From the NCBI GenBank assembly GCA_943736015.1, contig OX031059.1, forward strand, positions 44,775,159 to 44,839,158: DNA of 64,000 bases, read 5' to 3'. This document shows, piece after piece, positions 35,142 through 36,748 of the stretch. The translations under genes were made by a program, and so were the position numbers. Source of the stretch: Tridacna crocea (taxonomy: Eukaryota; Mollusca; Bivalvia; Cardiida; Cardiidae). Position 1 is the stretch's first letter. Each line of letters opens with the position of its first letter. Below the pieces are notes generated by a model. It had not been told where the DNA came from. It saw only the letters and a program-made list of their open reading frames with translations, and searched no databases.

Positions 35142-35143
35142 TA

Positions 35144-36702
35144 CCGTATTTATTCCAATAAAGGCCCGGGCGTTTATTAGAATGATGATCAATGATGACG
35201 TTGGGGATGAGCGATTATTAGAATCATGATCAATGACGAAGTTTGGGGTGGGCGGTTATTACAAGTTAATTGACTTTGCATCGCAGGGAATAGATCTAAA
35301 GTGACCAATTCAACCCTCAAAAAGACGTAAATACCATGTTTTAATCAGCATCTACGTAATATCGTCATTCATATAGCCATTTTTCACTCTATAACTGCGT
35401 ACAATCATTGTTTACATCGGAAATACGGAAGAAGTGCAAAAATAGACTGTCCTGTCGTCCGTGCTTGTTCGTCACAACGCCAGTTCGTCCATGGGCTTGG
35501 TCGTCCCTGGGCCTAGTTGGCCAAATCCTTATTTGAAAAAGATAAATTACTCCAAGCGAACAAATCTTTCCTTCTGAAGATTCTTCCATCGGGTTAGTAA
35601 TGTCCGATCTTAAATTCTTGGAATTGCCAGCAAATGGCGCCAAGACTGGGGCCATAAACACCCCATAAACACCCCTTACAAGATACGCGCTCGATTTACC
35701 ATTGGGAACACCTTGTTCAATTCTACGAATCAAGCCTCGGATGTATGCCGACAGACTACTTCCAGAAGGAACAACAACACCCCCATAACAAGAAATACAA
35801 TGTCATTATCGCGCAAAAGTTTGGAAAATTTCGGCCAATCTTTCGATCTAGCCCATTTTTTCAAGTGCGTAATCAATGCAAATCCTAAATTAAGCCATTT
35901 ATGCTGCTACAGCTAGACTTACCGTCATTCTACAGGATTTGTTGCCATTCGAAATGGTTACTAGTTGACATCATTTGGAACATCCCGAGAACTATGTAGT
36001 AGGGAGTATCTGTCGAATAACCGAGGTGTTCCGAATGTCGATTTACATGTATCACTCCCGCGAAAAGCTGACGTAATATATATTTCGATTGTGTCACTTG
36101 TGACTCACTGTTGTGAGAATCAATGTGTTAACCCCGTAATTTTAGATATGGTTGTAACAATAATGGCAACTTGTATGTTAGTGTCTGTGAAATCTGCTGT
36201 TAAAGGATATCATGTATACAGAAACGAATTTTCTAAAGGGACAATTTTAGAATGCTTACAAGAACCAGAAAACGAATACAGTGAATCAGCAATTATCGTG
36301 AAAAAAGGTGAAATAGTTATTGGGCACGTGCCCGAAGGACTTTGTCAATTATTTACAAAACTTTTCAATGATGGCCTTGTCGTCAACATTTCGGCTGAAA
36401 TAACGGGACCTCCTCGGCCGTCCTCGAATGGAATCTTTGTGAAGGGTGGCGGCATAGAAGTGCCATGTTCATGCAAACTGTACAGATCTGGTGAGAGGAA
36501 AGCTGAAGTGCGATTATTTTTAAAGAAGGAAATACTGAAAATTACTGCATAGACCGTAAGTCGAAATATTTTGACTCGGTGGTGGGCGTTTAATAGAATC
36601 ACCAACTTTTCAGTAAAATCTACCACTTTACGGCCGATTTTATGCGCTTTTTTGGGGACTGGGCGTTTATTAGAATAAGGGCGATTATTAGAATAAATAC
36701 GG
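35144..36702 (+). mobile_element. TA-flanked TIR transposon carrying a HIRAN gene
   Basis: Perfect 12-bp ends CCGTATTTATTC / GAATAAATACGG, flanked by TA (35142-35143, 36703-36704). Inside each end lie three copies of gggcgtttattagaat or near variants (35167, 35208, 35250; 36584, 36661, 36679), all in the same direction rather than inverted. The 1.56-kb body is CpG-richer than its surroundings and encodes one clear protein (36148-36552). The left half has open frames on both strands with no recognisable domain. No DDE transposase is visible, so the element is non-autonomous or uses an unrecognised enzyme. Confidence 0.85.
36148..36552 (+). CDS. Stand-alone HIRAN-domain protein inside a transposon
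   Basis: 134 codons from the first in-frame ATG to TAG (alternative ATGs at 36163 and 36175); the frame is open upstream to about 35965 but has no earlier ATG. HIRAN signature from about residue 18: VKGYHVYRNEF, then EPENEYSESAIIV, then VIGHVPEGL, and a C-terminal GGGIEVPCSCKLY. HIRAN domains in HLTF/Rad5 bind 3' ends of single-stranded DNA; here the domain is almost the whole protein, with no helicase or nuclease attached. Location inside TIRs makes it element-encoded. A role in binding transposon ends or cut DNA is my inference. Frame intact, no internal stop. Confidence 0.7.
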   Translation: MVVTIMATCMLVSVKSAVKGYHVYRNEFSKGTILECLQEPENEYSESAIIVKKGEIVIGHVPEGLCQLFTKLFNDGLVVNISAEITGPPRPSSNGIFVKGGGIEVPCSCKLYRSGERKAEVRLFLKKEILKITA

Positions 36703-36748
36703 TATTTTCCCTTTTACCAATATCTTTCTTATCAAGCAATCCTGTGTT

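What the first reader, a model, noticed from the sequence alone, without database searches (positions are those of the whole stretch)
35144..36702. A DNA transposon that encodes a stand-alone HIRAN protein
Seen: perfect 12-bp TIRs with TA flanks enclosing an intact 134-codon ORF with a HIRAN-like signature (EPENEYSESAIIV ... VIGHVPEGL). Known: HIRAN in HLTF/Rad5 grips 3'-OH DNA ends. Inferred: the element carries a DNA-end-binding accessory or cargo protein with no helicase or recognisable transposase, a possible undescribed transposition or end-protection strategy.
Basis: partly seen in the sequence, partly recalled or inferred. Interest (0 to 1): 0.85.

Follow-up and report, generated by a model that had tools for sequence, protein, structure and literature searches.

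The report
Jumping gene carrying a HIRAN gene

Summary

Two of 39 elements are long; the intact one (3,135 bp) encodes, divergently from HIRAN, a 423-aa pogo-superfamily transposase (DDE_1, HTH_Tnp_Tc5). The window copy is a deletion derivative that lost the transposase and kept HIRAN: a two-gene pogo-type transposon plus a swarm of HIRAN-only derivatives.

HIRAN relatives (54-70% identical, 125-140 aa) occur outside this genome; another relative (79%) ends in what reads as the translated right-end repeats. The protein's role is untested; most likely it binds transposon 3' ends, and a published dominant-negative effect of isolated HLTF HIRAN suggests end protection. Purifying selection in recent copies is weak, so passive retention is a live rival.

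The parts
35142..35143 (.). left copy of the TA target-site duplication
   Evidence: empty sites of two other copies show a single TA
35144..36702 (+). whole element, 1,559 bp, subfamily A, non-autonomous, with a 78-bp deletion near window 36023 relative to the common 1,637-bp form
35144..35167 (+). left terminal inverted repeat (first 12 bp perfect)
36679..36702 (-). right terminal inverted repeat (last 12 bp perfect)
35163..35183 (+). left subterminal direct repeat 1 (GGGCGTTTATTAGAAT type); candidate transposase-binding unit
   Evidence: same units in the long copy; binding role inferred
35204..35224 (+). left subterminal direct repeat 2
35245..35265 (+). left subterminal direct repeat 3
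36148..36552 (+). HIRAN ORF, 134 codons from the first in-frame ATG (likely start at codon 6 or 10)
36579..36599 (+). right subterminal direct repeat 1
36656..36676 (+). right subterminal direct repeat 2
36674..36694 (+). right subterminal direct repeat 3, running into the right TIR
36703..36704 (.). right copy of the TA target-site duplication

Best explanation
The window copy is a non-autonomous deletion derivative of a two-gene pogo-superfamily DNA transposon. The full element (3,135 bp; one intact copy found) encodes a DDxD transposase and, divergently, from start codons 398 bp apart, a 129-134-aa stand-alone HIRAN protein. The transposase acts in trans on the shared ends (TIRs plus subterminal repeats) and pastes copies into TA, doubling it (anatomy, copy number and empty sites shown; catalysis inferred from the family). 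One ancestral deletion removed the transposase but kept the HIRAN gene, and that derivative multiplied (inferred from shared breakpoints and copy number). The HIRAN protein most likely acts as an accessory DNA-end-binding factor that sits on 3'-terminated strands of cut ends and keeps host end-processing or remodelling factors of the HLTF type off the transposition complex (inferred; not shown). Identity of the element I hold at about 0.9; the HIRAN role at about 0.4 to 0.45.
For: Family anatomy: 39 of 39 two-ended copies carry HIRAN (38 of 38 paired by script, plus one spanning 8.1 kb with HIRAN pieces near both ends); TA on both sides in 21 of 21 copies bounded by BLAST without asking for TA; paralogous empty sites with one TA for two insertions. 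Transposase: the long copy on C7 has DDE_1 E 9.6e-25 and HTH_Tnp_Tc5 1.1e-10, D172/D275/D316 present, and named relatives are pogo elements; only two family copies were found to have it, both with HIRAN between the same ends. HIRAN; the residue aligned with HLTF N91 (N42) is invariant in 30 of 30 aligned relatives. Persistence: relatives at 54-70% identity are full length; in 3,000 neutral simulations without indels the frame was open in 4.6% at 60% and 2.7% at 54% identity. Linkage elsewhere: P0007 ends in ...GTGPLLEYGRLLE, which I read as the translated right-end repeats. Precedent: isolated HLTF HIRAN binds Cas9 post-cleavage complexes best where a 3' overhang is exposed, and inhibits HLTF-driven Cas9 removal and end resection (PMC11237066, passages).
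Against: No DNA binding was tested. Of the HLTF residues that border the dinucleotide pocket (Y72 and Y93; PMC4666394, one passage), Y72 aligns with V23, invariant in 30 of 30, and Y93 with Y44, which is H in many relatives; N90 aligns with E41. Within this genome the ORF shows little constraint: pooled N:S 20:13, P 0.057; in subfamily A the ORF varies as much per site as the non-coding part (0.0641 against 0.0642). Subfamilies A and B appear to share one deletion, so HIRAN retention is one event. The Pfam score is at the cut-off (25.1 against 24.7), and the long copy scores 24.6. The nearest other pogo element for which I could see both ends has no HIRAN. Linkage outside this genome rests on one protein; comparing by eye the contig lengths shown for HIRAN hits and for the 120 of 273 listed transposase hits gave no equal pair.
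Confidence: 0.45

Rival explanations
1. Passenger: the HIRAN gene was captured by, or is dispensable to, the element. It persists in the short copies only because a single deletion spared the right end and the copies are young.
For: A and B share the same breakpoints and internal stretch; the ORF lies near the right end (element 1098-1487 of 1637); A and B copies match the reference copy at about 95-100%; ORF and non-coding variation are equal in A; the nearest other pogo element with both ends seen lacks HIRAN.
Against: The gene is also in both transposase-bearing copies and is kept full length at 54-70% identity outside this genome, with several clusters of many members, hard to expect of a neutral passenger, although a protein database lists only open frames and the search admits only proteins of similar length.
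Confidence: 0.3
2. Dominant-negative decoy: the HIRAN-only derivatives supply an end-binding domain that blocks the host HLTF-type translocase from dismantling the transposase-DNA post-cleavage complex, so short copies gain from expressing it.
For: HLTF HIRAN alone is dominant negative in Cas9 removal and end resection (PMC11237066, passages); the ORF is stand-alone with no motor; 34 of 42 matches are uninterrupted near-full-length ORFs.
Against: HLTF is not shown to act on transposase complexes; pocket residue Y72 is not conserved; weak selection in the copies; no expression data.
Confidence: 0.2
3. Repressor: the HIRAN protein binds the subterminal repeats or the transposase and limits transposition.
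For: Direct subterminal repeats at both ends; divergent arrangement with a 398-bp region between the start codons; short copies keep HIRAN and lose the transposase.
Against: HIRAN binding described in the passages read is to DNA 3' ends, not to sequence motifs (PMC11237066); no test here.
Confidence: 0.1
4. Host gene hit by a transposon: the ORF is an ordinary host HIRAN gene that happens to lie inside element ends.
For: The host has other HIRAN-coding sequences.
Against: 39 of 39 two-ended copies on many contigs carry it with the same ends; the three other HIRAN loci that I read are divergent and exon-like.
Confidence: 0.01

Closest known systems
pogo superfamily DNA transposons, Passer family in particular
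   Same: DDE_1 catalytic domain, HTH_Tnp_Tc5 DNA-binding domain, TA target duplication, short TIRs, total length within 1.6-4.0 kb, transposase of about 420 aa (PMC9976928 and PMC7386202, passages). Named relatives include POGK-like and pogo entries.
   Different: A second, divergent HIRAN gene, where Passer is described with a single ORF; catalytic spacing DD40D where almost all Passer are DD35D; HIRAN-only derivatives. 'HIRAN' occurs 0 times in the main text of three pogo papers searched (PMC7325037, PMC7386202, PMC9976928).
DNA transposons with accessory proteins: ISL2EU (YqaJ), Kolobok lineages (lambda-exonuclease-like, RecQ, DnaQ, His-Me, KolX)
   Same: A DDE transposase plus a second protein, often DNA-processing (PMC4482050; PMC9587614; passages).
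   Different: Other superfamilies; ISL2EU duplicates AT, not TA; the accessories named in these passages do not include HIRAN.
HLTF / Rad5 HIRAN domain
   Different: Stand-alone, no SWI/SNF motor, no RING; pocket tyrosine Y72 aligns with V; an extra segment before the PC motif stands against a gap in HLTF.
Stand-alone HIRAN proteins of phages and giant viruses
   Same: Small HIRAN proteins on mobile DNA (structural matches such as Gp253 of Bacillus phage G and the HIRAN protein of ChoanoV1).
   Different: Virus genes, 10-21% identical in the top 15 rows; no tie to transposon ends was seen.

Membership tests
HIRAN domain (PF08797) | Pfam profile score at or above the curated cut-off | tested here: met
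   25.1 bits against 24.7; the long copy is just under, 24.6; of ten relatives scanned, five are above (up to 39.5) and five below
HIRAN domain (PF08797) | HIRAN fold | tested here: met
HIRAN domain (PF08797) | Binding of 3'-terminated ssDNA through the N90-N91 and Y72/Y93 pocket | tested here: inconclusive
   Sequence only: N91 kept, N90 and Y72 not, Y93 variable; no binding assay
pogo superfamily | DDE_1 domain with DDD triad, spacing within the reported range | tested here: met
   long copy: E 9.6e-25, D172 D275 D316, DD40D; range DD29-56D, up to DD59D, from PMC7386202
pogo superfamily | HTH_Tnp_Tc5 / CENP-B-like DNA-binding domain | tested here: met
   E 1.1e-10, 41.8 bits against 22.2
pogo superfamily | TA target duplication and TIRs | tested here: met
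   21 of 21 copies; empty sites for two insertions
Passer family | DD35D spacing (almost all members) | tested here: not met
   DD40D; relatives L047 and L048 are DD35D
Passer family | single ORF | tested here: not met
   two genes; Passer described with one ORF
Passer family | BrkDBD plus HTH_Tnp_Tc5, or HTH_Tnp_Tc5 alone | tested here: met
   HTH_Tnp_Tc5 above cut-off; BrkDBD only 13.4 bits against 23.4; feature
Passer family | clustering with Passer transposases in a tree | not tested
   no tree was built; hence filed at superfamily level only
ISL2EU | AT target duplication, THAP transposase, YqaJ partner | tested here: not met
   TA duplication; DDE_1/HTH_Tnp_Tc5 transposase; HIRAN partner

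The most novel reading that the evidence does not exclude
A pogo-type transposon lineage has recruited a motor-less HIRAN domain as an end-protection or dominant-negative factor: the protein caps 3' transposon ends in the post-cleavage complex and blocks host HLTF-type removal and resection. Because it works in trans, HIRAN-only derivatives that lost the transposase can spread as helper-carrying satellites rather than as mute MITEs.
Probability: 0.18. Interest if true: 0.85.

Novelty: new variant of a known kind. Interest (0 to 1): 0.62.

Why it matters
Accessory genes are known in other DNA transposon superfamilies, but the Passer relatives are described as single-ORF elements. A HIRAN partner would link transposition directly to the end-recognition module of fork-remodelling enzymes and offers a small, testable, motor-less HIRAN protein. 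If it shields 3' ends it would show how a transposon guards its cut ends from host repair. The satellite pattern (accessory gene kept, transposase lost) is also unusual and can be tested.

Tried and rejected
Related DNA outside the genome: viral-contig scans with A1 and A3 and genome-contig scans with A3 and P0118 found no relative; alignment A2 was too diverse to scan. Comparing by eye the contig lengths shown for HIRAN hits with those of the listed transposase hits (120 of 273 shown, longest contig of each cluster only) as a sign of shared contigs gave no equal pair: inconclusive. PDB phmmer with the single ORF gave nothing; the wider profile did. A literature search for the end sequence brought 11 papers, none about a transposon by title. 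The 3.3-kb insert of L016 was first taken for a full-length form and rejected: it has 449-bp inverted repeats of its own. A pogo-like hit 4 kb from a host-type HIRAN at C15:29.2 Mb was looked at in part (L054, 2 kb) and not counted: the HIRAN there is divergent and I saw no element ends. Element ends were sought by script in seven pogo-like loci and found in one, L047. Phage and giant-virus HIRAN matches were set aside as distant.

Selection: the pooled N:S test did not reach 0.05, so I do not claim purifying selection within this genome. That count used 27 of 39 elements (21 A, 6 B): L016 and L028 were left out for inserts, the two long copies were treated apart, and eight elements were not fetched in full.

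Full report

Genome census. The window lies in a 1.05-Gb genome of 31 contigs. tblastn with the ORF gives 42 matches (43 of 43 candidates scored); 36 cover at least 132 of 134 residues, 34 of these have no stop, and 8, the window's own included, are identical. The end pattern at up to 2 mismatches has 119 matches, control 0; 100 were listed. I used the 81 whose ends belong to this family and dropped 19 listed ones with other end sequences (mostly TACCGTATTTCT... or TACCATATTT..., related end families); 19 more were not listed. Of 40 left and 40 right ends 38 pair within 8 kb, and 38 of 38 contain HIRAN. A 39th element on C18 spans 8.1 kb, with the first 90 residues of HIRAN near one end and residues 87-134 near the other, as an insertion inside the ORF would leave. 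Two further orphan ends are short remnants (75 and 183 bp alike; L035, L036), and the last of the 81 rows is a degraded copy on C11. So 39 of 39 two-ended copies carry HIRAN sequence, and I found no HIRAN-less MITE with these ends; more diverged ones are not excluded.

Mobility. In 21 of 21 copies bounded by BLAST the outer 25 bases are the same and TA flanks both sides. Not all are independent insertions: three copies lie in one unit of at least 9.3 kb, at least 99.9% identical on three contigs, and two others share flanks. Joined flanks of 30 copies gave 12 junction-spanning matches to sequence without the element; I looked at eight of the 12. L028 against L027 (84% over 324 bp) and L023 against L051 and twice against L015 show one TA at the junction. 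In L023 against L016 the bases at the junction read TAA, and three rows (L014, L019, L042) align too poorly to judge.

The long form. Two elements are longer and hold a transposase: C7:17290000-17293139 and C2:18458961-18462821. C7 (3,135 bp, L043) has an intact 423-aa ORF on the minus strand and the HIRAN ORF on the plus strand, start codons 398 bp apart, divergent. The 423-aa protein has DDE_1 (87.6 bits, cut-off 22) and HTH_Tnp_Tc5 (41.8 bits, cut-off 22.2), with D172, D275 and D316 (DD40D). In C2 it is broken by indels. No other copy of this transposase was seen among the 99 of 259 candidates scored; the next long match is 42% identical, and short pieces reach 54% over 35 residues. The 42% relative, L047, is a 3,606-bp element with CCGTATTGCTTC ends, TA flanks and a transposase ORF but no HIRAN. 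Of 273 database relatives 120 are listed; named ones include pogo and POGK-like entries. The family is therefore pogo-superfamily. I do not file it as Passer, because the DD35D spacing and single ORF described for Passer (PMC7386202, PMC9976928; passages) are not met and no tree was made.

The short forms. Subfamily A (1,637 bp) aligns to the long form at element 1-376, at part of the intergenic region, and from about 110 bp upstream of the HIRAN start to the right end; the transposase is missing, and A has a 423-bp stretch that the long form lacks, bordered by inverted repeats. B (1,519-1,539 bp in six copies) aligns to A over 1-924 and 1020-1637, so A and B share the same breakpoints and most likely descend from one deletion. 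HIRAN retention in the short copies is then one event, not many.

Selection. Counting each segregating change once, A (21 copies) has 14 non-synonymous or stop and 11 synonymous changes against an expected 2.9:1 (one-sided P 0.034), B (6 copies) 6:2 (P 0.65), pooled 20:13 (P 0.057). Per-site variation of the ORF equals the non-coding part in A (0.0641, 0.0642) and is lower in B (0.0205, 0.0450). Between C7 and C2 HIRAN has 3 N and 1 S, the transposase 9 N and 2 S. Between subfamily majority sequences N and S are 6:1 (A-B), 5:2 (A-C) and 1:3 (B-C). So recent copies show at most weak constraint. Over longer times the gene is kept: ten aligned sequences at 53-87% identity to the window's span the protein with 35 invariant columns; in 3,000 neutral simulations without indels the frame was open in 19%, 8.4%, 4.6% and 2.7% at 80, 70, 60 and 54% identity. 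A protein database lists mostly open frames, so this is supporting, not decisive.

Relatives. The alignment search gave 99 proteins at E up to 0.01; clusters hold up to 101 members. I read 50 of 99. The search admits only proteins of 0.55 to 1.75 times the query length, so larger HIRAN proteins would not show, and 'stand-alone' is partly by construction. Many share the motif VKGYHVYR. P0007, 79% identical and so apparently not from this genome, ends in GTGPLLEYGRLLE, which I read as the right-end repeat pair in translation. This is the only evidence of linkage outside this genome. Of five other HIRAN matches in the host I read three; they are divergent (VGMHH or VAMHH in place of the element's KGYHV), with splice-acceptor-like starts by eye in two, unlike the element's gene.

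Mechanism. Shown: a multicopy family with the same ends, TA target, a transposase gene in the long form, a HIRAN gene in the copies. Inferred: that the transposase moves the short copies in trans (identical ends); that the subterminal repeats are binding sites; that HIRAN binds ends. In HLTF the pocket is bordered by Y72 and Y93 (PMC4666394, one passage), and N90A-N91A disrupts its function (PMC11237066, passages). From the alignment (residue numbers fitted by the 21-residue distance between the two tyrosines) N91 corresponds to N42, invariant in 30 of 30, but N90 is E41, Y72 is V23 and Y93 is Y44. So end binding is plausible, not assured. The same paper reports that isolated HLTF HIRAN inhibits HLTF-driven removal of Cas9 from cut DNA and end resection; a motor-less HIRAN made by a transposon could do this for its own post-cleavage complex. 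That pogo-type transposases leave 3'-OH ends is recalled, not looked up.

Novelty. Searches of the held library: HIRAN with DNA transposon, 0 papers; HIRAN domain with transposable element, 1 paper, on viral elements; HIRAN with transposase, 7 papers, seen as titles and abstract starts only; others (30 of 1,678 shown, mostly matches to longer words by my guess; 12 of 449 shown) brought no such paper in the rows shown. 'HIRAN' occurs 0 times in the main text of three pogo papers asked (PMC7325037, PMC7386202, PMC9976928). Repbase and Dfam were not searched, and subscription papers are largely absent, so the family may be catalogued there. Accessory genes in DNA transposons are a known kind (ISL2EU and Kolobok; passages); a HIRAN accessory in a pogo element is a new variant as far as these searches go.

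Noticed in passing
window 1-64000: A roughly 230-bp repeat with a palindromic core (GGAGAAAATGCTGGTTACCAGCATTTTCTCC) recurs about 50 times in 64 kb in both orientations.
   Followed up: no
L016:1172-4510: A different 3.3-kb element with 449-bp inverted repeats (97%) is nested in a HIRAN element at C10:43.8 Mb.
   Followed up: partly
L010, L011, L013: A unit of at least 9.3 kb, at least 99.9% identical, lies on three contigs (C4, C5, C8) and carries one HIRAN element inside; it contains internal repeats. Nature unknown.
   Followed up: partly
L047:554-4159: A related single-gene pogo element with TA-flanked CCGTATTGCTTC ends and an intact 474-aa transposase ORF.
   Followed up: partly
G000:C5:61388785, C6:21336313, C12:2008157, C1:17234983: Other repeats with related ends TACCGTATTTCTTCTAATAAAAGC and no HIRAN match nearby; the follow-up search did not complete.
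   Followed up: no
L054, L055, L056: Host HIRAN-coding sequences of a separate type, exon-like, outside the transposon family; a weak pogo-like hit lies 4 kb from the L054 locus.
   Followed up: partly
window 35702-36046 and the matching part of other A and B copies: A and B copies carry a 423-bp stretch absent from the long form, bordered by about 58-bp inverted repeats (81%), upstream of the HIRAN gene: perhaps an old nested MITE; the window copy lost 78 bp of it.
   Followed up: partly
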